Shown piece by piece: positions 1-20,922 of a stretch of DNA of 40,631 nt (within the stretch, counting starts at the first letter, position 1; each line of letters opens with the position of its first letter). The position numbers and the translations under genes were made by a program. This DNA comes from Gemmiger sp. (lineage in GTDB: Bacteria > Bacillota > Clostridia > Oscillospirales > Ruminococcaceae). The notes beneath the pieces were generated by a model that was not told the DNA's origin, ran no database searches, and worked only from the letters and a program-made list of their open reading frames with translations. Where the stretch lies: contig JAQUSS010000009.1 of NCBI GenBank assembly GCA_028710135.1, positions 1 through 40,631 of the forward strand. Reading direction: 5' to 3'.

Positions 1-327
1 GTTCGTTGCCCAGATACGAAACTGCACACCACGCTGGGATTTTACACGGTAACCAACGGAGATGATAACATCAAGATTGTAAAATTTTGTTTTATAGTTT
101 TTTCCGTCAGCACCAGTTGTCAAGTGTTCCTTGACAACTGAAGTACTGTCCAGTTCTCCATCTTTAAAAATATTATTTATATGCAGACTAATATTTTGCT
201 TCGTCGTTTGAAAAAGCTTTGACATATCCGCCTGGCTTAACCATACGGTTTCATCTTGCATCGTAACATCTATTTTTGTCAAACCGTCTTCGGTCTGATA
301 AATAAAAATTTCTCCATAGCTGTTCAC
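1..327 (-). CDS. RhuM-family protein, N-terminal part (cut by window edge)
   Basis: Reading the minus strand from a GTG at 327 gives an open frame of 109 codons to the window edge. It begins MNSYGEIFIYQTEDGLTKID and contains VWLSQADMSKLFQTTKQNIS and GYRVKSQRGVQFRIWATN. These are hallmarks of the RhuM family, named after a Salmonella pathogenicity-island protein of unknown biochemical role and common in phage-like and accessory islands. The first part resembles a helix-turn-helix (DMSKLFQTTKQNIS), so DNA binding is plausible but inferred. A run of five G lies about 8 bases before the GTG. A TTG five codons upstream is the alternative start. The gene starts 4 bases after the small ORF upstream of it and is probably translationally coupled and co-transcribed with the cas genes. 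The C-terminus is not visible. Confidence 0.85.
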   Translation of the reverse strand, partial: MNSYGEIFIYQTEDGLTKIDVTMQDETVWLSQADMSKLFQTTKQNISLHINNIFKDGELDSTSVVKEHLTTGADGKNYKTKFYNLDVIISVGYRVKSQRGVQFRIWATN

Positions 328-573: not shown

Positions 574-2772
574 CTATTTCTCCGGATTTAGCACGCCATC
601 CATGTATCCTAGGAAAGGGTCATAATGGAGATCCCACTGGTAAACATCCTCTGCAATCTGTTTTACGTGCCACTTTTCCAAATTCTTGCGGCGGATGGAT
701 ACCGCGTATTTTTGCACTTCCCGCCAATTTCCATGGCCCTTTTGAATCTGTTCTGCTACGGCAGCGTCCACAATCACCGGTACGGTATCACTTTCAATGA
801 CATGGAATAGGTCGTTGACCGTTTGAAAGTTTGAAAGCGTTTCCGCCTCCATCAGCGCCTGCATTTCTTTCGTTTCGCTTGTGCCGCGATACAATTCATC
901 CTGGATGGATTGTGTGCTCATCTCGGGCGTAATTTCCTTCTTTTCGCGTAAACATTCGCATAAATATTCTTTTAGAATTGCCGCACGCACCTTGATTCCC
1001 GGATGTGAAGTGAGCATGGCATCATCCTTCATATGGAAGCTCCACATCTGCGCATCCCCATAGAGTGCGTTGCGGCCAACCCTGCCTGCTGACTGTAACA
1101 GGGACAGAAGGGCGGCCAACTCCCGAAACCCAGTACGGAACGAAAAATCCACGCCGGCTTCCACACAGGAGGTTGCGGCCAAAACCCAATTGGAATCGGT
1201 TGGATTTGCCAGACGTTTTTTCACCACTTCCATGGTTTTCGCGCGGTCCACCGGCATAAGCGCCGTGGAAAGATGTTCTACGCACTTTTCTCCATACTTT
1301 TTACGGATGTCATCCGCAATCACCGCTGCATTTTGCACGGTATTCATAATCAAAAGCCGCGGCCCTGGCTGTGCCATAACCCAGTCGATCAGCTCTGCTC
1401 GGCTCAGTGGCTGAGAATTCCAACAATACGTAATCCTTTTTTTCTCATAGCGAAGCAATGCCTGGCGCAGGTTTTGGTTCACCATCTCGGGAACCTGCTT
1501 CGCCGGCGTTCCAACAAGCTTGGCAAGCTCTGGAATCTGCCAAAAACGAACCAGCGAGCCGGAGGCCAGAACCCAGTAGCAGCTCCACTCCTCCTCCAAC
1601 ACGTTCATCCAATGCCACGCAAGCGGGAGCAGCTTCACCGGCAGTGCAGCGTGTGCTTCATCCATGAAAATAATACTGCCCGGCAATGCATGCAGGCGGC
1701 GCAGTGTACTTGGGCGGTTGGAGGCTAAGGTTTCAAAAAAGGCAACCGCGGTGGTTACAATGATGGGTGCTCTCCACAAAGAGGTCAGGTAGCGCGTGTC
1801 TTCGCTCTCGAAATCTGCTTTGTGGTGCAGCTCTGCCACAACCGCCTCCGGGTCTTCCCCCGCCAATACCAGTGCTTTTCGGTAAACGTCCACAGATTGC
1901 GTGATAAGGTTGGTATAGGGCAGTACCACAAAAATGCGCCTGGCGCCCCTTAACATGGCCTGCCTTAGCTGATGTGCCATGATCGCGGTGGTTTTTCCAG
2001 ACCCGACCGGTGCGTCATTGGAAACAATGCCTGCTTTTGTTTCGCAATCCCGGCAGGCTTTGTACATCTGCGCGCGCAATTTGTTTCGTTCGCTCGGGTG
2101 CGCACCTTGCAGGCCTTCCACATACTGGTTTAGCGCTTCCAAGCGGCGTGCCGGTTGCAGTTCCGGCACATTTTCCGGCTTTGGGTACTGCCCGTAAGCC
2201 GCGGCGGTATCCGAATGGTCGGCATCCGCCAGGCAGGATAACATCATCCGAAAGAAGATGGCGGGGTCGCCTTCACAATACTCGGGAACGTGTGCGGCAC
2301 TTTCCGGTACCAAATGCCGGTGGAGCTGAAGCAGCTGCTCCAGCTCTTGGTCAACATAGCTTCGCACGGTTTCATGGGCATCTCGGTAGCAGGCTGCCTC
2401 TGCCCTGTTCGTTTCAACCGTAGAATCCGGCAACCCATGGTGATGCGCATACACAAGAAGAATCGAGCACAGCGCATCCCGCCCGCTCTGTTTCAGAAAG
2501 GCCGCACCGGCATCCGTATGGTTTACAGGTAAAGGCCCGGATTCTCCATCTTTTTGATGCAATACCGCCTGGTTTTTCTCGTCCAGTTTTCCTAAGTCGT
2601 GGTATGGTACTGCGCAGCGCAGGATATTTTCAAACTGTGCCGCATCCTTTTTACAATATGGTTTCATCTCCTGCGCAAAGCATAGCGCCAATTTTGTGGT
2701 ATTCTCCACATGCTCTGCATAACGCTGCGGGGGATACCCATTTTTCGCGCTGTGGGCAAAAAACGTTTCCAT
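574..2772 (-). CDS. cas3: Cas3 helicase-nuclease, type I-C-like
   Basis: Signature nuclease-helicase of type I CRISPR systems. It is recruited by target-bound Cascade, nicks the displaced strand with its HD domain and unwinds with its SF2 helicase. The 732-aa product has the N-terminal HD domain (H21, then YHDLGK with H58-D59, and AHHHGLPD further on). Walker A APVGSGKTT lies near residue 255, the DEAH box (FMDEAHA) near 371, SF2 motif III-like ASGS after it, and motif VI QSAGRVGRN near 562. All catalytic motifs are present, so it looks functional. The ATG at 2772 overlaps the cas7 stop as TGATG; a TTG one codon earlier is also possible. Cas3 sits last among the cas genes, whereas canonical I-C operons start with cas3. 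Confidence 0.95.
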   Translation of the reverse strand: METFFAHSAKNGYPPQRYAEHVENTTKLALCFAQEMKPYCKKDAAQFENILRCAVPYHDLGKLDEKNQAVLHQKDGESGPLPVNHTDAGAAFLKQSGRDALCSILLVYAHHHGLPDSTVETNRAEAACYRDAHETVRSYVDQELEQLLQLHRHLVPESAAHVPEYCEGDPAIFFRMMLSCLADADHSDTAAAYGQYPKPENVPELQPARRLEALNQYVEGLQGAHPSERNKLRAQMYKACRDCETKAGIVSNDAPVGSGKTTAIMAHQLRQAMLRGARRIFVVLPYTNLITQSVDVYRKALVLAGEDPEAVVAELHHKADFESEDTRYLTSLWRAPIIVTTAVAFFETLASNRPSTLRRLHALPGSIIFMDEAHAALPVKLLPLAWHWMNVLEEEWSCYWVLASGSLVRFWQIPELAKLVGTPAKQVPEMVNQNLRQALLRYEKKRITYCWNSQPLSRAELIDWVMAQPGPRLLIMNTVQNAAVIADDIRKKYGEKCVEHLSTALMPVDRAKTMEVVKKRLANPTDSNWVLAATSCVEAGVDFSFRTGFRELAALLSLLQSAGRVGRNALYGDAQMWSFHMKDDAMLTSHPGIKVRAAILKEYLCECLREKKEITPEMSTQSIQDELYRGTSETKEMQALMEAETLSNFQTVNDLFHVIESDTVPVIVDAAVAEQIQKGHGNWREVQKYAVSIRRKNLEKWHVKQIAEDVYQWDLHYDPFLGYMDGVLNPEK

Positions 2773-3662
2773 CAAAAACGCACCAAATCGGTGATGCTTG
2801 CAACCTTATCCTGCAATTCTTCCGGCAGCGCCGTTTTGTCCTGATAATCGCGCCAGCTTTCGGACGGTTCAGCTAGATTCCCGATACGTTCCGGGGTCAA
2901 GGCATCCAGCAGCATATAGTCCGGGCAGCTTCCCAGCAGGTTTTTGTGCTCAATGTACCAAGCATGGCGCAGCCGAACATCCGGCCGAATGGCAGAGCGA
3001 TTCATATCGTAGGCATGAGGAATCAACCGTGTAAGCAGCTCGATATCCTCGGCCGTACAGCCGCTCTTTCTGGCATAGTTCGGGTTGACAAAAAACGGCA
3101 TACAGTAAACGCCATGCTCCACCACGCGGAAAGCCAGGGGTGCCATACCGGCATTTTTTCCTTCTTGCACGCCCGCCTTGTTCGTATTCGTTTGGCGAAT
3201 AATGTTGACTGGCGAAAGCGATACCCCGACGCCAAACTGCACAACACCCGTCTTGATATAGCCCTTGTTGCCATCTTTCTCCAGAAAGGTGTTTCCAAAC
3301 ACGCGGGCATCCCAATATTTTTTAACAAAGTCGCTTTCCAAAAAATCGGCCTGGTCAAAATCCGCCAGCTTGCCGCCGGAAGTCATTTCCTTGGCGATGG
3401 CGGTACGGTCACGCCCCCGATGCTCGAGAATCTGATAATGTTCTGCATTCGATTTAAATTTTTCCGGCAGGCTTTCAAAGAAAGGCGAGGCATCGTCATC
3501 CAGCAAATCTCTCACCTTGCGCTTAAACGAAACGGGAGAAATTTCGCCACAGCCGTTTGGCCTTTGGCGCGGGTCCGATTCACGGTCGGGATCCCCATTG
3601 GGATTGGAATTGACCACTTCAATTACCAGCAACCCGGTTGCCCTTTTCATCTCATTCGCCAT
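2772..3662 (-). CDS. cas7c: Cas7c (Csd2-like) Cascade backbone subunit
   Basis: Backbone protein that polymerises along the crRNA guide in type I-C Cascade. The 296-aa product starts MANEMKRATGLLVIEVVNSN and carries the family's N-terminal signature NSNPNGDPDRESDPR followed by VSFKRKVRDLL, as in Csd2/Cas7 RAMP-fold proteins. I chose the ATG at 3662 because GGAGG lies 8 bases upstream. An ATG five codons earlier (3677) lacks such a site. The start overlaps the end of cas8c by 11 bases, and the stop overlaps the cas3 start by one base, so the four cas genes form a tightly coupled operon. Confidence 0.9.
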   Translation of the reverse strand: MANEMKRATGLLVIEVVNSNPNGDPDRESDPRQRPNGCGEISPVSFKRKVRDLLDDDASPFFESLPEKFKSNAEHYQILEHRGRDRTAIAKEMTSGGKLADFDQADFLESDFVKKYWDARVFGNTFLEKDGNKGYIKTGVVQFGVGVSLSPVNIIRQTNTNKAGVQEGKNAGMAPLAFRVVEHGVYCMPFFVNPNYARKSGCTAEDIELLTRLIPHAYDMNRSAIRPDVRLRHAWYIEHKNLLGSCPDYMLLDALTPERIGNLAEPSESWRDYQDKTALPEELQDKVASITDLVRF

Positions 3663-4149
3663 CTTGCTTTCCTCCATCGTTATTTTTTAGCGTATCCAAA
3701 GTATTGTTTTGGGTTTTGTTTTCTGCCTGTTCTGTTTGCTGGCCACCCTGCGGCCCCTCTGTTTTTTCCTTTTTGGGGAATGCTGCCAGATAGCCGATAA
3801 AATACTGGGCTTTTTCCTCCTCGCTAAAACGTGTCTGGCTGCCCCAAGCTGCATATAGCTGTGACGCAATACGCTCGTACAGCGAAAGGTACCAGCCTGC
3901 CAGCCGGCTTTCCTCCCCTTTTTGCTGGATGCCTTTTGCGCGATAGCTTCTTGCCCATGTGATATACGGATTCATCCGCTGGCCCAACACCGCCAACGTT
4001 TTGTAAGGCTGTTCTGCCCCGGCGGCATACAATCCACTGCCCGCCAGTGTGTTGGGCACATCGTTATCGCGCACAACCTTACAGTACAGTTCATGCAGTT
4101 CATCGGATAGCTTGAGCAGCTGCCCGAATAGATAGGGAAATTCCTTCAT
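3652..4149 (-). CDS. cas11c: Cas11c small subunit from an internal start in cas8c
   Basis: Inside cas8c, in the same frame, the ATG of residue 565 (MKEFPYLFGQLLKLSDELHE) is preceded by AAAGGAG with 6 bases of spacing, an almost ideal ribosome binding site. Translation from it would give a 165-aa helical protein identical to the Cas8c C-terminus. In characterised type I-C systems (Desulfovibrio vulgaris) the small subunit Cas11c is made in just this way from within cas8c and is needed for full Cascade assembly; the start in those systems also lies just before the YxLGRL-like helix. No separate cas11 gene is present in this operon. Seen: site, frame and position. Inferred: that it is used. Confidence 0.7.
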   Translation of the reverse strand: MKEFPYLFGQLLKLSDELHELYCKVVRDNDVPNTLAGSGLYAAGAEQPYKTLAVLGQRMNPYITWARSYRAKGIQQKGEESRLAGWYLSLYERIASQLYAAWGSQTRFSEEEKAQYFIGYLAAFPKKEKTEGPQGGQQTEQAENKTQNNTLDTLKNNDGGKQDGE

Positions 4150-5841
4150 GTACTTCTCCTTTCGCGTCCCAAGCCGATACAAAAACAGCCCCATGAGTGC
4201 CAGTGCATTCTGCGCTTGGCGCAGCCCCACCACCGGTGCGCCCTCGCCATCATAGCTTCCGCCGCCAAGGCCTATCTTTCCTAAATAGGGCACCAGGTTT
4301 GCCACATTGCCCATCAGGATAAACAAATCCCGGCGGATGACCGGCGGCTCCGCTTCAAACAGAAGCTGCATCCCATGATAACGCGGAACCGGTTTGAATT
4401 TATCTGTGGAAGGTTTTCCGTCCTGCCTCCAAACCAGGTTTAAGATATCGGAAACTTCCAGTGGAAACAACGTTGCGGGCTGGCCAAATAAAAACGTGGG
4501 CAGGTTCCGGCATCCGCGTGACCATTGTTCGCTGCAACGTTCAATCTCTGCCGGGGAAGTGTTATAGGTATAAACGACCTTTGATCTGGCTTTGTCCAGT
4601 TTTCGTAAAACAAAATACTGGATACGCTCGGACATCGGGTCGGTGCCCGGCTGTTTCGCCTTCTGCAATTCACTTACAAATGCCTTGGCAGCCGATTCAA
4701 ATTCCGCCTTGCTTTGGGTTTCATCCTGCGCCCCGCCCTTCGCCATGGTTTCCGGCGCACTCGGCCGCCTGCAAAAGCCAACCAGGCTGTATTTGTTTTT
4801 TTGCAAGGTTTCGGGGTAAGCGAACAGCGCTTCGTCCCTATCCGTGCCAACCCAGGTGATGCCCTTGTGCTTCGCATCGCTCATCCATGCCAGCGCCGAC
4901 TGCAATTCAAAACGCATTTCTTTGGAAATTGGATAGGTTGCATTTCCAATTTTTCCGTACCGGGTTTGGCACGGCTGCCCGCTGAACATTGTCCGAAGTG
5001 AAACTTCAAAGCCTGCCGCAAGCTTCACGGTCGGCATCGGCTTCTCGGTAGGCGCAAATTTTTTTCCGAACGCATCCTCGGTTTTCTCTTCCGTTTCCGG
5101 TTCCGCTGTCGCCGCCGCATCGGCGTCCAACAGTTTTTTGTTAAGCGCACTTGTAAAGCCGGCCGTTGCCACGGAGCCCCCCGCTTTGATCAGTTCTCTG
5201 CTATCTAACACCACGGATAACGTGCCATAATCGTCATTCGCACTTTTTGCGGGGTTCCCCAAATAGAAGAGAATTTGAAGTGCGAATGCAATCTGTTGTT
5301 TCTGTTCCAGCATTGCAAATGCTGCCCGCTCAAGTTCCCTGTGAAAACACGCCGCATCCGCAAATACACTCGTCTGCTCGATAAGCTGCTGTAGCGGTGG
5401 AAATACCGTTTTCGTTTCCTCAAAAAGTTTGGTTAACGCACAGGGCACATCCTGCATACAAATGCGGTACTTGTTACCAAATTTTTTCCCCCAGTTGTTT
5501 TCTCTGCAAAACCGATGAATTTCTTCCGTATTAAAATCCGTGGATTTTCCCTCTAGCCAATCTGAAACAATCTTTTTTTCTACTTCATCGGTTAAGCGAT
5601 ACAGCGGTGCCAGGTTTAAGGCCGGAAACGTCCCCAGATTTGACCCATACTTTCTGATTTGCGCGGCCTGCGCCATCTCCACACTTTCAACTTTATCAAT
5701 TTTCCCGTTGTCCAATATAATTTGCACGCAGGGGGCCTTTTTTGTGACCTTCGGGATGGGCTTGTAATTCGGATGGGTACGCTCTGGTACGATGCTTGCC
5801 CGGTGAAGTGCCACCGTTAACTGGTAGAGCTCATTAATCAT
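3652..5841 (-). CDS. cas8c: Cas8c (Csd1-like) Cascade large subunit
   Basis: Large subunit of type I-C Cascade, which recognises the PAM and recruits Cas3. The 729-aa product begins MINELYQLTVALHRASIVPE; the ATG at 5841 has AGGAGG 8 bases upstream and overlaps the cas5c stop (ATGATTAA). A longer frame open to 5931 only reads back into cas5c. Length fits Cas8c but similarity to textbook Csd1 is modest. The identification leans on the position between cas5c and cas7c, on GGGSYDGEGAP plus the LRQAQNALALMGLFLYRLG helix, and on the C-terminal YLFGQLLKLSDELHELY and YFIGYLAAFPKK segments, which resemble the Csd1 YxLGRL and FxLGYY motifs. The C-terminal tail after residue 690 is low-complexity (K, E, Q, N). 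Confidence 0.8.
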   Translation of the reverse strand: MINELYQLTVALHRASIVPERTHPNYKPIPKVTKKAPCVQIILDNGKIDKVESVEMAQAAQIRKYGSNLGTFPALNLAPLYRLTDEVEKKIVSDWLEGKSTDFNTEEIHRFCRENNWGKKFGNKYRICMQDVPCALTKLFEETKTVFPPLQQLIEQTSVFADAACFHRELERAAFAMLEQKQQIAFALQILFYLGNPAKSANDDYGTLSVVLDSRELIKAGGSVATAGFTSALNKKLLDADAAATAEPETEEKTEDAFGKKFAPTEKPMPTVKLAAGFEVSLRTMFSGQPCQTRYGKIGNATYPISKEMRFELQSALAWMSDAKHKGITWVGTDRDEALFAYPETLQKNKYSLVGFCRRPSAPETMAKGGAQDETQSKAEFESAAKAFVSELQKAKQPGTDPMSERIQYFVLRKLDKARSKVVYTYNTSPAEIERCSEQWSRGCRNLPTFLFGQPATLFPLEVSDILNLVWRQDGKPSTDKFKPVPRYHGMQLLFEAEPPVIRRDLFILMGNVANLVPYLGKIGLGGGSYDGEGAPVVGLRQAQNALALMGLFLYRLGTRKEKYMKEFPYLFGQLLKLSDELHELYCKVVRDNDVPNTLAGSGLYAAGAEQPYKTLAVLGQRMNPYITWARSYRAKGIQQKGEESRLAGWYLSLYERIASQLYAAWGSQTRFSEEEKAQYFIGYLAAFPKKEKTEGPQGGQQTEQAENKTQNNTLDTLKNNDGGKQDGE

Positions 5842-6505
5842 CGATGGCGCCTCCTGTGGAAAAGTCCAATCTTCCCTGATGAATCCGCAAACTCTGGCAG
5901 TAAACCGCGCGATACTCCGAATGATAGCCATCCGGGAATACTTCTTTTAGCATCGAAGGTATGGTAATATCCGAAACTTCCCTGCACACCTCTGTTTCTG
6001 GGCGAAACGGGCCAAAATAGGATGGCGTAAACTCCTTCCAACCCAGCACCGGTATGGAAAAGGACTGCCCGCGCTTTAGCCGCCGGTTAAAGATATCTTG
6101 ATACGCATGGCCGGGTGCCGTTGTCTTTTTATCCCATTCTAGTGCCTTCTCGGGAAGGTTCTGCTTGCAGCAATTTGGAATCACATCGGCATAGAGGCGA
6201 TAGCAGACATCCAACAGCACCGTTGCATACAGCTGATAATTGTTGCCCTTTTGAATAGCTTTGCTTGCGCGCAAAGGCCCGCCATAATTGGTCACATAGG
6301 CGTGGTACTGGATTGGTGCGCAGATTTCCACCGCCGTGGGAACAACCCGTATGTCAGGCCCCCACAGGACTGCTTCAAAAATCCCTCGCACTGCGGAAGC
6401 TGTTGGCGCCGGATAGCTAACGGGTGCATCGCCGGTATCCGGCCTGCTCCAGATTGCCGTAGCCCCCGCAATCTCCATTGCGATTGGGTATTTGTAGTGC
6501 CGCAC
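5834..6505 (-). CDS. cas5c: Cas5c (Cas5d) pre-crRNA endonuclease and Cascade subunit
   Basis: In type I-C, Cas5 replaces Cas6: it cuts pre-crRNA at the base of the repeat hairpin, leaving an 11-nt 5' handle, and caps the Cascade 5' end. The 223-aa product shows the family pattern SRPDTGDAPVSYPAPTASAV then RGIFEAVLWGP near the N-terminus, and RRLKRGQSFSIPVLGWKEF followed by FGPF in the C-terminal half, matching Cas5d. The start is GTG at 6505 with AAAGGAGG 7 bases upstream; an out-of-frame ATG lies in that spacer. It is the first gene of the cas operon, and 25 bases upstream of its start lies a sequence matched by the crRNA-like element at 6705-6731. Confidence 0.9.
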   Translation of the reverse strand: MRHYKYPIAMEIAGATAIWSRPDTGDAPVSYPAPTASAVRGIFEAVLWGPDIRVVPTAVEICAPIQYHAYVTNYGGPLRASKAIQKGNNYQLYATVLLDVCYRLYADVIPNCCKQNLPEKALEWDKKTTAPGHAYQDIFNRRLKRGQSFSIPVLGWKEFTPSYFGPFRPETEVCREVSDITIPSMLKEVFPDGYHSEYRAVYCQSLRIHQGRLDFSTGGAIDD

Positions 6506-6526
6506 GTTTCATCCTCCTTTTATAGT

Positions 6527-6544
6527 TTCGTTAAATTGGTAGTT
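6527..6544 (+). promoter_or_regulatory. PAM plus protospacer-like site in the cas operon leader
   Basis: TTC at 6527-6529, the established type I-C PAM, is followed at 6530-6544 by GTTAAATTGGTAGTT. This differs at one base (position 12) from the 15 bases that follow the repeat-like element at 6705-6716. The first 11 bases, which include the seed, match exactly; beyond position 15 matching stops. A full Cascade footprint would span about 6527-6564, covering the predicted transcription start of the cas operon. Inference: an autorepression target bound but not cleaved. Confidence 0.75.
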
Positions 6545-6565
6545 AAACACACATGGTTTAGTTCT

Positions 6566-6594
6566 AATATAGCCTGTTTGCAGCGAAATAGCAA
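6566..6594 (-). promoter_or_regulatory. Predicted promoter of the cas operon
   Basis: On the minus strand, TTGCTA (6589-6594) and TATATT (6566-6571) are separated by 17 bases. This gives a plausible sigma-A promoter with transcription starting near 6558-6560 and a leader of about 55 bases before the cas5c GTG. The predicted start lies at the far end of the Cascade footprint expected from the PAM/protospacer site at 6527-6544. Confidence 0.55.
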
Positions 6595-6645
6595 GTGCCA
6601 TTTTGTTTCCCTCAAAAAATTCATTTCGTCATTGTCATTTAGGGT

Positions 6646-6674
6646 TTTACATTTTTCGTTTTTTATGGTAAATT
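6646..6674 (+). promoter_or_regulatory. Candidate promoter of the crRNA-like RNA
   Basis: TTTACA (6646-6651) and TAAATT (6669-6674) with 17 bases between them, in AT-rich DNA, would start transcription near 6681, just before the repeat-like element. The -10 box is weak, so this is a tentative call; an overlapping TATATA at 6677-6682 is an alternative. Confidence 0.35.
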
Positions 6675-6684
6675 TGTATATATC

Positions 6685-6716
6685 TTTTGATAGGGTTATC
6701 AATTGTGGATTGAAAT
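6685..6716 (+). repeat. Solitary degenerate type I-C CRISPR repeat
   Basis: The last 12 bases, GTGGATTGAAAT (6705-6716), are exactly the conserved 3' end of type I-C repeats. They are preceded by a hairpin TTGATA (6687-6692), loop GGGT, TATCAA (6697-6702), in the place where I-C repeats carry their GC-rich stem. The 32-base length fits. The stem is AT-rich and sits 2 bases further from the handle than usual, so the repeat is divergent upstream of the handle. No second copy occurs in the window. Confidence 0.7.
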
Positions 6717-6739
6717 GTTAAATTGGTTGTTCGTCTAAA

Positions 6740-6787
6740 AAAGGCTGCCGTTTTCGTGATTGAAAAATCATGAAAACGGCAGCCTTT
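6740..6787. terminator. Strong hairpin terminator after the crRNA-like element
   Basis: GGCTGCCGTTTTC (6743-6755) pairs perfectly with GAAAACGGCAGCC (6772-6784). The stem continues through a G-T wobble and five more pairs to a GAAA loop (6762-6765). The T-run is six bases when read on the minus strand but only three on the plus strand, so it terminates best leftward; it would still be a stable 3' end for a plus-strand small RNA. Confidence 0.7.
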
Positions 6788-6855
6788 GGTGGTATATGCT
6801 ATATAAAAGAGCAAGCTTTACCTACACCAAACCGTGCCATGCGTTTTTTTGCTTA

Positions 6856-6884
6856 TTGAGAAACCGTGGTTTTTCAGCTATACT
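6856..6884 (+). promoter_or_regulatory. Promoter of the DUF1697 gene cluster
   Basis: TTGAGA (6856-6861) and TATACT (6879-6884) with the optimal 17-base spacing. It lies about 100 bases upstream of the DUF1697 start codon and is the only good promoter before the plus-strand cluster at 6986-8802. Confidence 0.65.
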
Positions 6885-6985
6885 GTATATAATATATGGC
6901 CGTGCGTGAGAAGCTTGCCCGGGGCGCTTGTAAGCGGCAGCTTCACGCGCTGGCCGCGCAGGCTGAATTGGATAAAGGGGTAACG

Positions 6986-12460: not shown

Positions 12461-13650
12461 AGCGCGCCTCCTTTTGCGGTGGGGGATACAAATTCTGTTT
12501 TTTCGGCCAGGGCGGTGCGGTACAGCGCCGCTGCGCGGGCTGCAAACCGGGTAGCCGAAAATGTTTCCGCCGAGGCCGCCGCCCGCCTTGCCATGGCCCC
12601 GCACAGGGTGGCATCCGCCAGCAGCGCGGCAAGGAATGTATCCAGCTCGGCCCGGGTTTGGTACTGAAAGCCGTTATCGCCGTTTTTCAGCACCCCGGCC
12701 AGGCAGGCATCGGCACGGCAAACCAGCGGCAGCCCCGCCGCCAGCGCCTCGATGTAGGTTAGGCCCTGCGTTTCGCTGGTGGAAGCGCTCAAAAACACAT
12801 CCCCCAAATGGTAGCAGGCGGCCACCTGCGCGGGGGGCACCATGCCGGCAAACACCACGGCGTGGTTTTCCAGCAGGCCCAGGCGGGCGGCGGTTTCGGC
12901 CAGCTCGGCCTGTTGGGGGCCACCGCCCACCAGCAGCAGGGTGGCCGGGGCATCCCCCATGCGGGCGCGGCATTTTAGCAGCTCGTCCACGTTTTTTTCC
13001 TTCGCCAGCCGCCCCACATAGAGTAAAATTTTATTTTGGGGCGGGATGCCCAGGCGGGCGCGCTCGGCCGCCAGCCAGCCGGGCGCGGGGCGGGCCGAAA
13101 ACTGCGAAAGCTCGATGCCGGTGGGCAGCACTGATACCGGCCGGGCGATGCCATAATCGGCCAACAGCTCGCGCACCTTCTCGGTGGGGGCAATTACCCG
13201 GTCGGTTTGGTAGAGAACCATGCAAGAAAACCCTTTGGCCAGCCACCGGCCCCAGCGGCGGCTGGGGGAAAAGTAGTGGGTGTAATCCTCGTACACGGTA
13301 TGGTAGGTATGTAGCAGTGGCGCGCCCGCCGCCCGGGCAATCCGCTTTGCAAGCGGAAAGGTGCTGAACTCGCACTGCGAATGTACAACATCGGGCTTCC
13401 AGGCCGTCAGCTCCCGCACAACGGCCCCCACGGCGGCGGCGCGCAGCCGGGCACCCGGGTAAACCAGCCCCGCATACACCGAGCCAATGGCATAAACGCC
13501 ACCTGCAATTTGCGTTTTGCTATCGCCCGAAAGGGTAAGGATGCGTACCTCGTGCCCTTGCTGCTCTAGCGCCTGGCGCAGGTTTGTGATGGAGGTAACT
13601 ACGCCGTTGACGGCAGGCAGGTACCAATCGGATGTAATCAAAATTTTCAT
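12445..13650 (-). CDS. GT4 glycosyltransferase, LafA-like diacylglycerol glucosyltransferase
   Basis: A 401-aa GT-B enzyme beginning MKILITSDWYLPAVNGVVTS, with HSQCEFSTFPLAKRIARA, HTYHTVYEDYTHYF and the donor-site E-x7-E region SETQGLTYIEALAAGLPLVC. The N-terminal glycine-rich NGVVTS loop and the YHTVYEDY motif are typical of 1,2-diacylglycerol 3-glucosyltransferases (LafA/alMGS type), which make monoglucosyl-DAG. AGGAG lies 7 bases before the ATG. First gene of the operon, so its product would be the substrate of the CpoA/LafB-like enzyme two genes downstream. The last 30 residues are not conserved in the family. Confidence 0.82.
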   Translation of the reverse strand: MKILITSDWYLPAVNGVVTSITNLRQALEQQGHEVRILTLSGDSKTQIAGGVYAIGSVYAGLVYPGARLRAAAVGAVVRELTAWKPDVVHSQCEFSTFPLAKRIARAAGAPLLHTYHTVYEDYTHYFSPSRRWGRWLAKGFSCMVLYQTDRVIAPTEKVRELLADYGIARPVSVLPTGIELSQFSARPAPGWLAAERARLGIPPQNKILLYVGRLAKEKNVDELLKCRARMGDAPATLLLVGGGPQQAELAETAARLGLLENHAVVFAGMVPPAQVAACYHLGDVFLSASTSETQGLTYIEALAAGLPLVCRADACLAGVLKNGDNGFQYQTRAELDTFLAALLADATLCGAMARRAAASAETFSATRFAARAAALYRTALAEKTEFVSPTAKGGALWLKV

Positions 13651-13964
13651 GGTGAACTCCTATTCGGGTGGGGCGCAAAAATGGCGGCTGCCAAAAAGCA
13701 GCTACAACCAAGTTGCCGCGCCCGGCAGGCAACCGCCATCTTGGGCAATTGCGCGGGTTTTGGCAACGCTGGCGGGCCACTGTTCTGTTGGTTGGAAATA
13801 AAAGCCTCTATCCATAGAACGAGCGAGCCGGGCATTCTGCTGCAACCTGGCGAAAATTTTATATTCTACCCTTCTATTCTCCCCCATAACGATAAATATA
13901 TCGAAAAGAAAAGGTTAAGCGCGTATAAAGAAACGTGCGCGGCAGCCTCTTTTTGTTGGCCACC

Positions 13965-14018
13965 AAAAAGCACGGCCCACGGCTCCCTGCCAAAAAGGCG
14001 AGGGCCGTGGGCCGTGCT
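13965..14018 (-). terminator. Terminator behind the M32 carboxypeptidase
   Basis: AGCACGGCCCACGGC (13969-13983) and GCCGTGGGCCGTGCT (14004-14018) are perfect 15-base complements. On the minus strand the hairpin is followed by TTTTTGG. It lies about 130 bases after the stop of the M32 peptidase gene. Confidence 0.8.
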
Positions 14019-14024
14019 GTGTAT

Positions 14025-14064
14025 GGTAATCTCTGCATGGGTAATCTCTGCGGGGTAATCGCTG
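14025..14064 (+). repeat. Three short direct repeats GGTAATC(T/G)CTG
   Basis: GGTAATCTCTG occurs at 14025-14035 and 14040-14050, and GGTAATCGCTG at 14054-14064, 14-15 bases apart. The spacing is longer than one helical turn. They lie downstream of two converging transcript ends; function unknown, possibly slippage-derived. Confidence 0.6.
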
Positions 14065-14147
14065 TGGGTTTTGCTTTCGGTTTTGATTCTTATACGGGTG
14101 CTGTTATTTTTTACAGTTTGGCCCGCTGCGGGCCGTCGCAAGCAAAA

Positions 14148-15638
14148 TTACAGCCCGTATATATCGGTATATTTATCCGTTAGGTATTTTATATAATACT
14201 GGGGGTCAAACGCACCGCCGCAAAGGTTTTCCACCAGCCAGGCGGGTTCTTTTTTGCAGCCGTACTGCCAAAGGCGGGTTTTCAGTTCCTTCACCAGGGG
14301 GGTAAGCTCGCCGCTGGCAAAAAGCGTGGCCAGGGGCAGCTTTTTGCCGATATCCGCCACCGCCTGGGCCGCGTAGGCGCTGCCCAGCGCGTAGCTGGGG
14401 AAGTACCCCATATCCCCCATGGCCCAGTGGATATCCTGCAAAACGCCGTGGGTATCGTCCGGCACGGTGATGCCCAAATATTCCTGGTATTTTTCGTTCC
14501 AGGCGGCGGGCAGGTCCCGCACGGCCAGGGTGCCCTGCAACAGGGCTTTTTCCAGCTCGTACCGCACCATAATGTGCAGACTATAGGTCAGCTCGTCGGC
14601 CTCGGTGCGGATAAGTCCCGGCTCGGCGCGGTTTACGGCACGGTAAAATTCCTCCGCCGTTACCCCCGCAAGCTGGGTGGGGAACTGCGCGGTGAGGGTG
14701 GGCCACAGGCAACCGATAAATTCGCGGCTGCGGGCCACGCAATTTTCAAACAGGCGGCTTTGGCTCTCGTGCAGGCCCATGGTGGAGCCACCCGACAAAA
14801 TGGTATAATCGAGTGCAGGGTCAACGTGCAGCTCGTACAGGGCGTGGCCCCCCTCGTGCGCAACCGAATAGAGGTTGGAGGCCATATCCCGCGGGAGGTA
14901 GTGGGTGGTGATGCGCACATCTCCACGCCAAAAATTGGTGGTGAAGGGGTGCTCGGTTTCGCCCAAAATGCAATGTTCCGGGTCAATGGTCCACCGCCGC
15001 ATGATGGCCTGGCTGATGGCCCGCTGCCCTTCCATCGGCCAATCGGCATCCAAAAAATCGGCCCGCACCGCACGCCCGCGCTGCCGTATGGCGGCCAGCA
15101 GGGGCACAATGGCGGTGCGCAGGGTGGCAAAAAATTCATCGCAGCGGGCAATGGTCAGCCCGCGCTCGTATTGGTCAAGCCACACCTCGTAGGGGTCGCG
15201 CCCGGGGGCAATATACCCGGCCTGGGCGCGGCGGCCCGCCACCAGTTTTTCAAGGTAGGGCGCGTAGGCCGCAAAATCGTTATTCCGCTTGGCCTTGCCC
15301 CACACCGTTACCGATTGTTGGGCCAGGCTGGCAAAGGCGGCATACTCCGCCGGGGGGATGCGGCAAATCTCGTTATACCGGCGGCGCAGTTCCCGCACCT
15401 CGGCCTTTTCCTGCTCGGTTTCGGCATCCGCGGCAGCGGTGGTGAGCAGGGCATCGGTTTCGGGGTTGACGAGAAGGCGGAACTGGGCCTCGCTCAAAGC
15501 CTCGGCCGCAACGGCGCGGCCCGCCGCACTCTCGGGCGGGGCCACGGTGGATTCATCATACTCGATGGCGGCCAGGGCATAGTAATAGGCGTAGTATTGT
15601 TTTTCCAGCGCGCGCAGCGCTTGAATGCTTTCTTTCAT
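14148..15638 (-). CDS. M32 family metallocarboxypeptidase (Taq-type)
   Basis: A 496-aa cytoplasmic zinc carboxypeptidase of family M32, which removes C-terminal residues with broad specificity. The zinc site HEGGH is seen in SVAHEGGHALYE near residue 262, and the third ligand in the family motif GLHESQSRLFEN. IRTEADELTYSLHIMVRYEL is another M32 signature. Length is right for the family (about 500). The ATG at 15638 starts MKESIQALRALEKQYYAYYY; the upstream in-frame stretch to 15680 overlaps the transcribed leader. The ribosome binding site is weak (AGAAAGAAG). It is a single-gene unit with its own promoter and terminator. Confidence 0.93.
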   Translation of the reverse strand: MKESIQALRALEKQYYAYYYALAAIEYDESTVAPPESAAGRAVAAEALSEAQFRLLVNPETDALLTTAAADAETEQEKAEVRELRRRYNEICRIPPAEYAAFASLAQQSVTVWGKAKRNNDFAAYAPYLEKLVAGRRAQAGYIAPGRDPYEVWLDQYERGLTIARCDEFFATLRTAIVPLLAAIRQRGRAVRADFLDADWPMEGQRAISQAIMRRWTIDPEHCILGETEHPFTTNFWRGDVRITTHYLPRDMASNLYSVAHEGGHALYELHVDPALDYTILSGGSTMGLHESQSRLFENCVARSREFIGCLWPTLTAQFPTQLAGVTAEEFYRAVNRAEPGLIRTEADELTYSLHIMVRYELEKALLQGTLAVRDLPAAWNEKYQEYLGITVPDDTHGVLQDIHWAMGDMGYFPSYALGSAYAAQAVADIGKKLPLATLFASGELTPLVKELKTRLWQYGCKKEPAWLVENLCGGAFDPQYYIKYLTDKYTDIYGL

Positions 15639-15687
15639 AGTATTGGCTTCTTTCTGTTCGTATTTAAAAAAAGGGGGCACCGGCTAC

Positions 15688-15696
15688 AGTATACCA
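15688..15696 (-). promoter_or_regulatory. Extended -10 promoter of the M32 peptidase gene
   Basis: On the minus strand TGGTATACT gives an extended -10 box (TGnTATACT). No good -35 is present at 17 bases upstream. It places the transcription start about 45 bases before the ATG. Confidence 0.5.
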
Positions 15697-15759
15697 CAGT
15701 TGGGCGGCGGGGGAAATAGCGGCGCGGGCCGGTTTTTGGCGGGCGTGGCAGGGTTTTAC

Positions 15760-15788
15760 TTGCCTTTTGCCTTGCAAAGAGGTATCAT
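15760..15788 (+). promoter_or_regulatory. Promoter of the GT2 gene
   Basis: TTGCCT (15760-15765) and TATCAT (15783-15788) with 17-base spacing, 44 bases upstream of the GT2 start codon. Confidence 0.6.
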
Positions 15789-15831
15789 AAGTGCAAGAAT
15801 ATAGGGGCTATGCCCCGGGAGGTTTACTAGG

Positions 15832-16716
15832 ATGGAGCAACCCCTTGTCAGCATCATCGTACCCATCTACAATGCCCAAAAGCACATTGCCCGCTGTGTG
15901 GAAAGTATCCGCCGCCAAAGCTACCCCGCGCTGGAAATTCTGCTGCTCAACGATGGCTCGCAGGATGTCAGCTACGAGGTTTGCCAGATGTACGCGGGGA
16001 TTGATAAGCGCATTGTGCTGATTGATAAAGCCAACAGCGGGGTGGCGGCCACCCGCAATCTGGGCCTGCGCTATGCCAGCGGCGACTACCTGCAATTTGT
16101 GGACGCCGACGATACCCTGGAGCCGGATGCCACCCGCCTGCTGGTGGAAAAAGCCACCGCCCACCAGGCCGATTTGGTGATTGCCCACTACAACCGCGTC
16201 ACCCCACCTGCCGACCCACCCGAGCTTTCGCGCCTAGCGAAGGATTTGCTGCCGGATGGCACGGTGGAGCGGTTATCTACCCCGCGGCCCACGAAAATCA
16301 AAGCCTTTGGCTTTTTGCCCGAGGGCTTTATGGACAAAACCCAGTTTGCGCAGGGGCTGATGCAGGAACCGGCATCCTTTTATTATGGCGTGATGTGGAA
16401 CAAGCTGTACCGCGCCGCTTTGGTGCGGGAACATACCGATGTGATTTGCAGCGAGGAGCTGAACTGGAGTGAGGACCTCTACTTCAACCTAAGCTTTATC
16501 CGCTACGCCGAGCGTTTTTATTCGCTGGCGGTGCCGGTGTACAACTACCTGCAAAACCCCGAGAGCATCTGCCATACCAAGCTGAACCCCATCAACGTTT
16601 TGACGACCCGGGCCTCCCTGTTTGCCTACTACAAGCAGCTTTACGAGAGCTTGGGCCTATACGAGGAGAACAAGGTACAAATTTTCAAATACCTGGTTTC
16701 CATCGCTGAAAGTTGA
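15832..16716 (+). CDS. GT2 family glycosyltransferase
   Basis: A 294-aa GT-A fold enzyme. It opens MEQPLVSIIVPIYNAQKHIA with LLNDGSQDVS (nucleotide-binding Asp), NSGVAATRNLGL and the metal-binding DxD motif as FVDADDTLEPD. Such enzymes build cell-wall or capsular polysaccharide from nucleotide sugars; donor and acceptor cannot be inferred. There is a C-terminal region with WSEDLYFNLSFIRYAERFY typical of small EpsJ-like members. GGGAGG lies upstream of the ATG. The protein ends abruptly in YLVSIAES, somewhat shorter than many relatives (320-350 aa), so a modest C-terminal loss is possible. It stands alone, not in a polysaccharide cluster. Confidence 0.88.
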   Translation: MEQPLVSIIVPIYNAQKHIARCVESIRRQSYPALEILLLNDGSQDVSYEVCQMYAGIDKRIVLIDKANSGVAATRNLGLRYASGDYLQFVDADDTLEPDATRLLVEKATAHQADLVIAHYNRVTPPADPPELSRLAKDLLPDGTVERLSTPRPTKIKAFGFLPEGFMDKTQFAQGLMQEPASFYYGVMWNKLYRAALVREHTDVICSEELNWSEDLYFNLSFIRYAERFYSLAVPVYNYLQNPESICHTKLNPINVLTTRASLFAYYKQLYESLGLYEENKVQIFKYLVSIAES

Positions 16717-16839
16717 GCGCCACCCTGTTTTGCCCCCAAAAAGGCAAACTGCGCCACCGGCGAATAAAGCAGGCTGCTTAAAAACCAACAAAAAAACGTA
16801 TACCATAATGCTACCATGCTACAATAAGGAAGTGCTTGT

Positions 16840-17211
16840 ATGAAAATTATAACGACCCCCAACGCCCCCGCCGCCATCGGCCCCTACGCCCAGGGGGTAA
16901 TCTCAGGCGGGTTTATCTATTGCTCGGGCCAGATTCCGGTTGACCCCGCCGTGGGCGAGGTTGTGCCGGGTGGCATTGAGGCCCAGGCCGAGCAAAGCTG
17001 CAAAAACGTGGGGGCCGTGCTGGCCGCCGCCGGGGCAAGCTACCCCCAGGTGGTAAAAACCACCTGCTTTTTGGCCGATATGGGCGATTTTGCCACGTTT
17101 AACGCGGTGTATGCCAAGTATTTTACCGGCAAGCCCGCCCGCAGCTGCTGCGCCGTGAAGGCCCTGCCCAAGGGCGTACTGTGCGAGATTGAGGCGGTAG
17201 CCGAACTATAA
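16840..17211 (+). CDS. ridA: RidA (YjgF/UK114) enamine/imine deaminase
   Basis: A 123-aa RidA protein, which hydrolyses reactive 2-aminoacrylate and other enamines made by PLP enzymes, protecting them from damage. Family motifs: APAAIGPYAQGV near the start, YCSGQIPVDP, and the C-terminal region with the substrate-binding arginine in GKPARSCCAVKALPKGVLCE followed by IEAVAEL. Length is standard and it acts as a trimer in the cytosol. AAGGAAG precedes the ATG; TGCTACAAT just upstream looks like an extended -10 box. A bidirectional terminator separates it from the convergent MFS gene. Confidence 0.95.
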   Translation: MKIITTPNAPAAIGPYAQGVISGGFIYCSGQIPVDPAVGEVVPGGIEAQAEQSCKNVGAVLAAAGASYPQVVKTTCFLADMGDFATFNAVYAKYFTGKPARSCCAVKALPKGVLCEIEAVAEL

Positions 17212-17231
17212 CGCCCCCCGCTTTAAACCAA

Positions 17232-17275
17232 AAAATCACCGCCTAGGCAGCGTAGCCTGGGCGGTGATTTTATTT
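17232..17275. terminator. Bidirectional terminator between ridA and the MFS gene
   Basis: AAAATCACCGCC (17232-17243) pairs with GGCGGTGATTTT (17260-17271), with an inner TAGGC/GCCTG stem. A-runs and T-runs flank both sides, so it can stop transcription from either convergent gene. Confidence 0.85.
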
Positions 17276-17281
17276 TACGCA

Positions 17282-18517
17282 TTAGGAGGCCGATTCGTTT
17301 TTGGCGCTGCTTTTGCCGCGTATTCTGCGCCGCACGGCGCAAAGGGCGGCGGCAACCCCGGCCAGAAAAAGTGGAACCCCCAGCAGGCACAGCCCCGCAC
17401 CCGCGCTGCCCGCTGCATCCCCCGCCACGCCCACAAGGGGGCTGGCGATGATCATCAAAACGCTGTAGGCCATGCTATCCACGCTGACAAGGGTGGCGCG
17501 TTGGTCGCTCGGGTAGGCATCGTGCAGGCTTTTTTCAGCATGGAGGAGCCATACCGAGAAGGCCGCGCCCGTAAGCATGGCCCCGGCAATGGCCACCCAC
17601 ACCCGGGGCGCGGCCCCCGCCACGGCGGTGCCCAACCCGCCCAGCATGGCGGCCAGGGCATACAGCTTTAGCAGGCTGCCGGGGTGCAGCCGCCGCCCCA
17701 GGGTGGTGCCCAGCAGGCGGGCAAGCTCCACCCCCAGCAGGGGCAGGCCCAGCAGCATGGTGGGCAGGCCAAGCTCGGTAAGGCGCTGCTGCAAAAACAT
17801 CAGGGTAAGGTAGCAGGGCAGGCTGATGAGGGCGTTTGCCATAATTTTGCGGGCCACCGCCGGGTTGCCCACCAAAAACCGCACCGATAGGGCGATATGC
17901 TCCCGCAGGCGGGCGGGCAGGCCCGCAAAGGGGTGCTGCTGCCGGGCCGTTTGTTTGCTGGTTACGGCAGGCTCCCACAGGCCGCCCGCCGCCACCGTGC
18001 GGGTAAGGGCAACCGCGGCATCCAGCAGGTAGAAGCCGGTATAGCCAAGCACCCCCGTAAGCAGGCTGCACAAATCATTCACCACGCTGCCCAGCGTTTG
18101 CAGGATGCTGACGTTGGCATCCACCTGCAAATACGCATCGGCGCAGCCTGCCTGCACCAGGCTATCGTAGGTAAGGGCCTCCTGCGTGCCGGAAATCAGG
18201 TTGTAGGAGAGCGCCATGAGGGACATGGAAAGGCACACCCAGCCAAAGCCGCTGCCGGCCACCATGGCAACCCCCGCAGCCGCCCCCATCAGCCCCGATA
18301 CCCGCAGCGACCGCCGCCGGCCCATCAGGTCAGCCGCCATCCCGCTGGGTATCTCACAAAGTAGGCTGGTGATGTGGAAAACACCCTCGGCCAAGCCGAT
18401 TTGCCAAAGGGTAAAACCCCGCGCCGCCAGCAGTACCACCCACACCGCGTTGGTAATGCGCAGGCAGGAGGCAAAGGCATAGGCATAAATATGCCGCAAT
18501 TGTTTTTTGATATCCAT
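17282..18517 (-). CDS. MFS transporter, probable drug efflux type
   Basis: A 411-aa major facilitator with about 12 hydrophobic segments. The MFS motif A loop between helices 2 and 3 is seen as MAADLMGRRRS after LLCEIPSG; ISGTQEALTYDS in helix 5 region is typical of Firmicutes MFS exporters. Substrate not deducible. The start chosen is ATG 18517 (MDIKKQLRHIYAYAFA); the open frame upstream to 18610 runs through a terminator hairpin and is not coding. AAAGGAAC lies 12 bases upstream and is partly masked by a hairpin. The gene sits behind a 267-base structured leader with an intrinsic terminator, so expression is probably induced by attenuation, as in many antibiotic-resistance exporters. Confidence 0.88.
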   Translation of the reverse strand: MDIKKQLRHIYAYAFASCLRITNAVWVVLLAARGFTLWQIGLAEGVFHITSLLCEIPSGMAADLMGRRRSLRVSGLMGAAAGVAMVAGSGFGWVCLSMSLMALSYNLISGTQEALTYDSLVQAGCADAYLQVDANVSILQTLGSVVNDLCSLLTGVLGYTGFYLLDAAVALTRTVAAGGLWEPAVTSKQTARQQHPFAGLPARLREHIALSVRFLVGNPAVARKIMANALISLPCYLTLMFLQQRLTELGLPTMLLGLPLLGVELARLLGTTLGRRLHPGSLLKLYALAAMLGGLGTAVAGAAPRVWVAIAGAMLTGAAFSVWLLHAEKSLHDAYPSDQRATLVSVDSMAYSVLMIIASPLVGVAGDAAGSAGAGLCLLGVPLFLAGVAAALCAVRRRIRGKSSAKNESAS

Positions 18518-18524
18518 AATAAAC

Positions 18525-18563
18525 ACCGTTCCTTTAAAATTCAAAAAATTGAAATAAAACGGT
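18525..18563 (-). promoter_or_regulatory. Hairpin over the MFS ribosome binding site
   Basis: ACCGTT (18525-18530) pairs with AACGGT (18558-18563), with inner TTCAA/TTGAA. On the mRNA the arm next to the start codon overlaps the AAAGGAA ribosome binding site (18529-18535). This could add translational control to the upstream terminator. Confidence 0.45.
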
Positions 18564-18577
18564 GCGCCCAAAATGGC

Positions 18578-18609
18578 AAAAAAATGCCGCGGCAAACCAC
18601 GCCGCGGCA
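18578..18609 (-). terminator. Leader terminator upstream of the MFS gene
   Basis: On the minus strand TGCCGCGGC (18601-18609) pairs with GCCGCGGCA (18585-18593) and is followed by seven T. It sits 60 bases before the MFS start codon and downstream of the gene's apparent promoter, so it would switch the gene off unless bypassed. Confidence 0.85.
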
Positions 18610-18629
18610 CGAATAATAACGTACTACTG

Positions 18630-18790
18630 CGTTTTACCAGCTTATAAAAGGGCGCACTGCGGTAAGGTGTTTGTTAAATGTTTCCTTTTGCATTGTACAA
18701 AAGGCCCGATAACCAACACACCGCAGATGCACTCCTTCCGGTAAAACGTTCAAAATGATGGGGCCACAAAGCCTTACAAGGCTTTGCTAT
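18630..18790 (-). ncRNA. Structured 5' leader (attenuator) of the MFS gene
   Basis: On the minus strand the transcript would begin with a perfect 8-bp hairpin (AAAGCCTT/AAGGCTTT within 18767-18786). A nested fold follows: outer stem CGTTTTACC (18740-18748) with GGTAAAACG (18630-18638); middle stem CTGCGGT (18720-18726) with ACCGCAG (18657-18663), extended by GTGTTGGTT with AACAAACAC (one mismatch); and apical CCTTTTG/CAAAAGG (18684-18704). The terminator (18578-18609) follows. A ribosome binding site GGAAGGAG and a 15-codon frame lie inside. This is the layout of a riboswitch or leader-peptide attenuator; it matches no riboswitch class that I recognise. Confidence 0.6.
18674..18721 (-). CDS. 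Possible 15-aa leader peptide of the MFS attenuator
   Basis: A GTG at 18721, 10 bases after AAGGAG, opens a 15-codon frame, MCWLSGLLYNAKGNI, ending in TAA. It spans the middle and apical stems of the leader fold, so a ribosome stalled on it would break them. GTG start and longish spacing keep this tentative. Confidence 0.35.
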   Translation of the reverse strand: MCWLSGLLYNAKGNI

Positions 18791-18819
18791 AGTATACTAC
18801 CGCCGCCGGGGAATTACAA
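18791..18819 (-). promoter_or_regulatory. Promoter of the MFS leader transcript
   Basis: On the minus strand TTGTAA (18814-18819) and TATACT (18791-18796) have 17 bases between them. Transcription would start near 18784, giving a leader of about 267 bases. Confidence 0.6.
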
Positions 18820-18912
18820 GGGGGGATTTTTTGTGGGTGGGGGGCAGGGCCGGTTCGCTATCGGGCTGTTCGGGCGCTGTGCTTTCATGGTGCTATTGCC
18901 CGGTATCGAAGT

Positions 18913-19071
18913 GAAGATCCTTCTGCAACGGTTCAAAACTGGATGCGAAACCGGGATGTTATCGAATTTTTGGGGTTATGGGAAACCATACACAACCCCC
19001 AGTTTAACCCCCTCGAATTCGAGGGGGTTAAACAAAAGGCCGGGTACAATGCGTTTACACCATCGCCCAAA
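18913..19071 (+). pseudogene. KilA-N domain remnant
   Basis: The plus-strand frame starting GAA at 18913 reads EDPSATVQNWMRNRDVIEFL, then GLWETIHNPQFNPLEFEGVK and QKAGYNAFTPSPK. This matches the KilA-N DNA-binding domain of phage and accessory proteins (WxRNRxTIEFLGxWExxxNPxF then EFxGxKxxAGxNxFTLSPK). No start codon with ribosome binding site precedes it, and after SPK the similarity stops; the rest of the domain (WIExTxAIG onwards) is missing. I read it as a decayed fragment of a phage-type gene, about 53 codons of homology. Confidence 0.75.
19002..19033. repeat. Perfect 32-bp palindrome inside the KilA-N remnant
   Basis: GTTTAACCCCCTCGAA (19002-19017) is followed directly by its exact reverse complement, with no loop. 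It encodes the FNPLEFEGVK stretch of the KilA-N fragment, so codon choice created or preserved the palindrome. On DNA it could be a symmetric protein-binding site. Confidence 0.8.
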
Positions 19072-19094
19072 GCCGCCGCAAAGCGGGCTTTTTT

Positions 19095-19128: not shown

Positions 19129-19156
19129 CTGCGGCGCGGGCTTTTCACATTTATCG

Positions 19157-19185: not shown

Positions 19186-19193
19186 GGTTGCAG

Positions 19194-20905: not shown

Positions 20906-20922
20906 ATGGTTGTATGTTCGGC

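What the first reader, a model, noticed from the sequence alone, without database searches (positions are those of the whole stretch)
6527..6787. A CreR-type crRNA mimic aimed at its own type I-C cas promoter
Seen: a lone I-C-type repeat end GTGGATTGAAAT (6705-6716) is followed with no gap by GTTAAATTGGTTGTT (6717-6731). The cas leader carries GTTAAATTGGTAGTT at 6530-6544, and the three bases before it are TTC, the known I-C PAM. Eleven seed-side bases match exactly, then 3 of the next 4; beyond that nothing matches. Register (spacer begins exactly at the repeat boundary), PAM, and location over the cas start all agree. A rough chance estimate for an exact 11-mer plus PAM in about 400 positions is near 1 in a million. 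Known: Cas-regulating RNAs (CreR) guide Cascade to cas promoters with partial pairing and so autorepress, and derepress when Cascade is titrated or inhibited. I am not aware of a described case in a divergent, adaptation-less I-C operon like this one.
Basis: partly seen in the sequence, partly recalled or inferred. Interest (0 to 1): 0.95.

Follow-up and report, generated by a model that had tools for sequence, protein, structure and literature searches.

The report
Self-repressing guide RNA for CRISPR genes
Next to a type I-C CRISPR operon lies a short guide-RNA gene, outside any array, whose first bases match the start of that same operon, most likely so that the CRISPR complex can turn its own genes down; the same arrangement, with different matching letters, recurs in other bacteria.

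Summary
A lone type I-C repeat end (6705-6716) is followed without a gap by a guide matching the cas5 leader at 6530-6540 behind TTC.

Comparison supports the CreR reading. In 75 non-duplicate relatives, the same pairing (handle, guide at the repeat boundary, TTC, at least 9 of 10 seed bases) occurs in 16 at the true register and in none at 15 false registers. All 18 lone handles near cas5 have a seed partner, 15 behind TTC. Among four close relatives guide and target co-vary at positions 1, 4, 5, 9 and 10. Pairing runs 1-5, 7-11 and 13-17 and skips 6 and 12. Twelve of 80 further I-C stretches show it too.

Most likely this is a CreR-type autorepressor of a type I-C operon; transcription, loading and repression are inferred. 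It is not universal: 59 of 75 relatives show no such pair. One review names CreR in I-B, I-E and V-A; the two primary papers were not held, so an earlier I-C prediction cannot be excluded. 'Adaptation-less' is unproven: the contig ends 573 bp past cas3.

The parts
6705..6716 (+). lone repeat end (5' handle) GTGGATTGAAAT
   Evidence: in nine relatives with both array and element the last 12 repeat bases agree at 11-12 positions
6717..6739 (+). guide; seed 6717-6727, further match 6729-6731
   Evidence: co-varies with the target in relatives
6527..6529 (+). TTC, PAM of the target
   Evidence: TTC in 16 of 75 relatives against at most 2 for any other trinucleotide
6530..6544 (+). target in the cas5 leader (seed 6530-6540, mismatch at 6541, match 6542-6544)
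6646..6674 (+). promoter-like site for the element (TTTACA-17-TAAATT)
   Evidence: consensus match only (3 sites found, 1.3 +/- 1.3 expected); largely conserved among window, L020, L021, L022
6687..6702 (+). possible small stem before the handle (TTGATA-GGGT-TATCAA), remnant of the repeat hairpin
   Evidence: shuffle p 0.134 here; not part of the predicted minimum-energy fold of 6688-6790
6740..6787 (+). 22-bp hairpin closing the element, terminator-like
   Evidence: -38.4 kcal/mol, z -10.3; the terminator scan lists none, plus-strand T tract only TTT before GG
6566..6594 (-). promoter-like site for cas5 (TTGCTA-17-TATATT), predicted start about 6559
   Evidence: consensus match only
5834..6505 (-). 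cas5 (Cas5c)
3652..5931 (-). cas8 (divergent Cas8c)
   Evidence: PADLOC 8.8e-217; no Pfam or NCBIfam match
2772..3677 (-). cas7
574..2775 (-). cas3, nuclease and helicase motifs present by eye

Best explanation
A CreR-type regulatory guide of a type I-C system. A short RNA starts upstream of 6705, carries a degenerate repeat whose last 12 bases (the handle) are intact, then a guide, and ends in a strong hairpin. Cas5c and the rest of Cascade take it up like a crRNA. Because the guide matches the cas5 leader only over segments 1-5, 7-11 and part of 13-17 beside TTC, Cascade forms a short R-loop there, enough to hinder transcription of cas5-cas8-cas7-cas3 and too short to call in Cas3. The operon thus represses itself; ordinary crRNAs or anti-CRISPRs that occupy Cascade would relieve it. 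Shown: anatomy, register, PAM, recurrence, co-variation, pairing pattern. Inferred: transcription, processing, loading, repression, relief.
For: 16 of 75 relatives with a handle-guide-TTC pair at the true register, 0 at each of 15 false registers; PAM tally TTC 16, TTT 2, others 1. 18 of 18 lone handles near cas5 have a seed partner, 15 behind TTC. Own leader scores 10/10 in 12 and 9/10 in 4; other loci's leaders reach 10/10 in 2 of 240 cells (the sisters L020/L021) and 9/10 in 2. Co-variation at five guide positions among four close relatives. Skipped positions 6 and 12 and an end at 17, in 28 pairs. 8 of 42 and 4 of 40 further I-C stretches, 0-1 at false registers. Handle intact while the rest of the repeat has decayed. 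Target overlaps or touches the best predicted cas promoter region in 11 of 16. Cas3 motifs present.
Against: No transcript or binding data. 59 of 75 relatives show no TTC pair, and the second I-C locus of the same genome shows none. 3 of 18 lone handles lack TTC. In 5 of 16 (L019, L036, L037, L043, L093) the target does not overlap the best-scoring promoter prediction. The small stem before the handle is weak: below p 0.05 in 6 of 19 elements, 0.134 here, and not in the predicted fold. No terminator listed by the scan.
Confidence: 0.88

Rival explanations
1. Same RNA and same target, but the outcome is not simple repression: for example activation, a transcription roadblock with a timing role, or control of the element's own promoter.
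For: In L043 and L093 the target lies just upstream of the best predicted -35 and in L019, L036 and L037 elsewhere. In L235 the target abuts the element's own repeat.
Against: 11 of 16 targets overlap or touch the best predicted core promoter or start; known CreR guides repress (passages).
Confidence: 0.07
2. A leftover repeat and spacer of a decayed array, a self-targeting accident without a regulatory role.
For: The 5' part of the repeat is degenerate; no array near it in this contig.
Against: Recurrence with different letters, co-variation, and pairing limited to 11-17 bases in a fixed pattern.
Confidence: 0.03
3. A plain antisense or trans-acting RNA pairing with cas mRNA, or a duplicated leader piece, without Cascade.
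For: The guide equals a leader stretch of the same locus.
Against: The match begins exactly at the repeat boundary and needs TTC; every sixth base is skipped; targets occur on both strands (L019, L033, L037, L065).
Confidence: 0.01
4. A phage-type RNA anti-CRISPR (Racr) decoy or a CreA antitoxin of a toxin pair.
For: Racrs are solitary repeats, with a tested I-C case (passages of PMC10651486); CreA guides Cascade to a toxin promoter (PMC9458426).
Against: It sits at the cas operon; its handle-plus-guide pattern has no match in viral contigs; the guide addresses the cas5 leader, not a toxin gene.
Confidence: 0.01

Closest known systems
CreR, cas-regulating RNAs (Liu et al. 2023, Cell Host Microbe; seen only through reviews PMC12737573, PMC13131331, PMC12948488)
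   Same: Repeat-derived guide beside the cas operon, limited match to the cas leader, PAM, own effector as target.
   Different: Type I-C here; the review lists I-B, I-E and V-A. One repeat only, closed by a hairpin instead of a second repeat.
CRISPR-derived RNA regulatory elements (Shmakov et al. 2023, NAR; not held, title seen in a reference list, contents recalled)
   Same: Standalone repeats with partial match to cas promoters, predicted by computation, mostly in type I.
   Different: Could not check whether I-C loci of this kind are in it.
CreTA (CreA guide)
   Same: Ectopic degenerate repeat, partial match behind TTC (PMC9458426 passages).
   Different: CreA represses a toxin, not cas genes.
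Racr RNA anti-CRISPRs
   Same: Solitary repeat, including I-C (PMC10651486 passages).
   Different: Carried by viruses and plasmids as decoys.
Cas9 long tracrRNA autoregulation (Workman et al. 2021; reference-list title seen, contents recalled)
   Same: A short partial guide makes the effector repress its own operon.
   Different: Type II, single-protein effector, tracrRNA-derived.

Membership tests
CreR | Repeat-derived element outside an array beside the cas operon | tested here: met
CreR | Guide beginning at the repeat boundary with limited match to the cas leader behind a PAM | tested here: met
CreR | Guide-target match maintained in relatives | tested here: met
CreR | Target on the cas promoter | tested here: inconclusive
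   predicted promoters only; overlap or touch in 11 of 16 by best prediction
CreR | Transcribed and loaded into the effector | not testable with these tools
   needs RNA sequencing and pull-down
CreR | Represses cas expression; relieved by crRNA competition or anti-CRISPR | not testable with these tools
   needs reporter assays
CreA of CreTA | Target is the promoter of a toxin gene | tested here: not met
   only exact TTC-seed site in the genome is the cas5 leader
Racr | Encoded by a virus or plasmid as a decoy repeat | tested here: not met
   host cas locus; no match in viral contigs or plasmids
Type I-C CRISPR-Cas (the operon) | Cas5c, Cas7c, Cas8c, Cas3c | tested here: met
   PADLOC (Cas7 best model labelled Cas7b, I-B/I-C); NCBIfam Cas5c and Cas7c below cut-off
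Type I-C CRISPR-Cas (the operon) | cas4-cas1-cas2 and array | tested here: inconclusive
   contig ends 573 bp past cas3

The most novel reading that the evidence does not exclude
A single-repeat CreR is an old, recurrent part of type I-C systems, placed beside the start of the Cascade genes in both gene orders. It obeys a fixed pairing rule (TTC, then 5 bases, skip, 5, skip, up to 5, then nothing) that sets Cascade to bind and repress without cutting. In this genome a second I-C system has a repeat ending in the same 12 bases, so crRNAs and the CreR could be exchanged and the two systems' expression coupled.
Probability: 0.4. Interest if true: 0.72.

Novelty: new variant of a known kind. Interest (0 to 1): 0.62.

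Why it matters
Type I-C is one of the commonest subtypes (abstract of PMC7684278, listing). A built-in autorepressor would explain how its cas genes are held low and how they could respond when Cascade is drawn off by crRNAs or blocked by anti-CRISPRs. The natural guide-target pairs also form a ready data set on how little pairing lets Cascade hold a promoter without recruiting Cas3.

Tried and rejected
Rfam scan of the window: nothing at gathering threshold. Looser handles gave no convincing new elements: with two tail mismatches 17 loci at the true register but up to 8 at false ones. Viral contigs with the lineage's handle-plus-guide pattern: none. Plasmids with the 341-bp region: none. Cas8 against solved structures: one chance match, E 0.82. 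The 23 viral-contig relatives of Cas7 (23-34% identity) were not followed. Terminator scan of 6450-6900: none. No structure was predicted. CreTA, Racr, array remnant and antisense readings were set aside as given under rivals.

Literature. Passages only: PMC12737573, PMC13131331, PMC12948488, PMC10651486, PMC9458426, PMC7684278, PMC11656645, PMC11127173, PMC7296934. PMC11417383: searched for five terms, none found. PMC8406640: start of abstract in a listing, TTC for a I-C system. Liu 2023 and Shmakov 2023: not held; what I say of their contents comes from reviews or recall. Searches bearing on whether an I-C CreR is in print; none of the listings shows one, and most subscription papers are outside that library.

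Full report
WHAT IS THERE. The window is the whole of contig C128 in a 2.8 Mb, 88% complete draft genome. On the minus strand lie cas5 (5834-6505), cas8 (3652-5931), cas7 (2772-3677) and cas3 (574-2775). PADLOC's best models are Cas5c, Cas8c (E 8.8e-217), Cas3c and, for Cas7, a model labelled Cas7b for I-B/I-C, with Cas7c next. NCBIfam's Cas5c and Cas7c models match below cut-off and Cas8 not at all, so the operon is divergent. Cas3 keeps its nuclease and helicase motifs (by eye). Divergently from cas5, on the plus strand, follow a promoter-like site (6646-6674; 3 such sites found where shuffles give 1.3), a possible small stem, the repeat end GTGGATTGAAAT (6705-6716), a guide of about 23 nt and a 22-bp hairpin at 6740-6787. 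The guide's first 11 bases equal 6530-6540, directly behind TTC, and positions 13-15 match as well. The target lies between the predicted cas start (about 6559) and the ribosome-binding site seen by eye.

IS IT CHANCE? For this locus alone, Markov leaders of the same length and composition gave a TTC plus full seed match 3 times in 100,000. TTC plus the seed has one exact match in the draft genome.

RELATIVES. A search of 297 genomes of the same family with Cas8 found 5 with a match, the window's own included; four other genomes of the genus that were searched had none. A scan of genome contigs with a Cas7 alignment found 185 relatives, of which the best 80 were kept. With the window and four family stretches this made 85 loci; 79 had a resolved cas5 start. 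Two duplicates (L028 = L018, L049 = L016) and two with under 250 nt upstream (L048, L099) were dropped, leaving 75. In these I asked, on both strands of up to 860 nt, for a handle (at most 2 mismatches) whose next 11 bases match, at 9 or more of positions 1-5 and 7-11, a site behind TTC. 16 loci have such a pair at the true register and none at each of 15 false registers. By trinucleotide: TTC 16 loci, TTT 2, four others 1 each. Asked the other way, 18 lone handles (at most 1 mismatch, within 450 nt of cas5; array-like L058 set aside) all have a partner of at least 9/10, 15 behind TTC; the other three are L024 (AGT), L025 (TTT) and L069 (GTC), where the match without TTC is weaker evidence. 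59 of 75 show no TTC pair; looser handles did not add convincing ones.

CO-VARIATION. Guides tested on other loci's leaders reach 10/10 in 2 of 240 cells, both between the sisters L020 and L021, and 9/10 in 2 more; on their own leaders 12 reach 10 and 4 reach 9. In the alignment of window, L020, L021 and L022 the guide varies at positions 1, 4, 5, 9 and 10, and the target carries the same change in the same genome each time; position 6 differs between guide and target in two of the four, position 12 in all four. These are few evolutionary events, but in four near relatives at the same place.

PAIRING RULE. Over 28 pairs (16, 12), matches at positions not used for selection are: position 6, 6; 12, 6; 13 to 17: 26, 22, 24, 20, 15; 18, 6; 19, 8. 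Five, skip, five, skip, up to five is what a Cascade filament would give, in which every sixth base is turned out of the duplex. That is recalled for type I; the passage I found states the six-base step for type III Cas7. The match then stops, which fits binding without Cas3: in a I-F1 system shorter R-loops keep interference off (passages of PMC7296934).

OTHER I-C SYSTEMS. Cas5c searches found matches in 55 of 245 genomes of the order and 85 of 299 of the phylum. From each ranked list I took 40 stretches by hand, for flank length and spread (one genome, G458, gave two), plus two stretches of the window genome's own second I-C locus. Pairs at the true register: 8 of 42, false registers 0-1, and 4 of 40, false registers 0-1; one or two could be chance. 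At 10/10 in those 80 stretches TTC has 10 loci, TTT 2, three others 1 each. Nine lie in the cas3-cas5 gap (L174, L178, L189, L191, L193, L196, L204, L210, L236) and three before cas3 (L168, L169, L235). The window genome's second I-C locus showed none. So the device occurs in both gene orders, mostly next to the start of the Cascade genes.

THE REPEAT. In nine loci with array and element the last 12 repeat bases agree at 11-12 and the 21 before them at 3-10. A stem before the handle is possible in many, but its shuffle p is below 0.05 in 6 of 19 elements and 0.134 in the window, and the predicted fold of 6688-6790 pairs these bases otherwise. The closing hairpin stands where a second repeat would be; the window's plus-strand T tract is poor and the scan lists no terminator.

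MECHANISM. The best account is autorepression by a CreR-type guide as described for other subtypes (passages). Transcription, processing by Cas5c (the I-C processing enzyme, passage), loading, repression and relief are inferred. With the best-scoring predicted promoter the target overlaps or touches the core promoter or start in 11 of 16; L019, L036, L037, L043 and L093 do not fit.

NOVELTY. One review lists CreR in I-B, I-E and V-A, another says type I and V-A in general. The primary papers were not held; the searches in Tried and rejected list no I-C CreR. I call it a new variant of a known kind: same principle, another subtype, one repeat with a closing hairpin, and a clear pairing rule.

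LIMITS. 'Adaptation-less' is not shown: the contig ends 573 bp past cas3, with a RhuM-family fragment at its edge. Near relatives differ: L021 has a partial cas1 match, cas2 and an array, L022 an array without a cas1 match, L020 neither in its 20 kb.

Noticed in passing
L002 and L124 (G000:C180, about 12926-21009): The same genome has a second I-C locus in the usual order (cas3, cas5, cas8, cas7, cas1, cas2) followed by one repeat ending in the same 12 bases; beyond it the sequence looks like a conjugative element (by eye), with no further exact repeat end in the genome besides the window's.
   Followed up: partly
window 574-6505: Cas7 is 88-89% identical to three Lachnospiraceae-type loci (L020-L022) but 74-75% to loci of its own family (L016, L018), and four genus members lack the operon: probable horizontal transfer.
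   Followed up: no
window 1-327: A RhuM-family fragment (PF13310) at the contig end just downstream of cas3, where relatives carry arrays.
   Followed up: partly
L017, upstream of cas5: A transposase-like reading frame (by eye) lies directly upstream of cas5, and no lone handle was found there.
   Followed up: no
L024, L025, L069 upstream of cas5: Lone handles whose guide matches the leader behind AGT or TTT, TTT and GTC instead of TTC; weaker PAMs might favour binding without cutting.
   Followed up: no
L058 28-194: A short repeat array, with a degenerate last repeat, sits directly upstream of cas5 in addition to the main array.
   Followed up: no
L235 1929-1990: The target abuts the element's own repeat upstream of cas3, which could mean control of its own promoter.
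   Followed up: no
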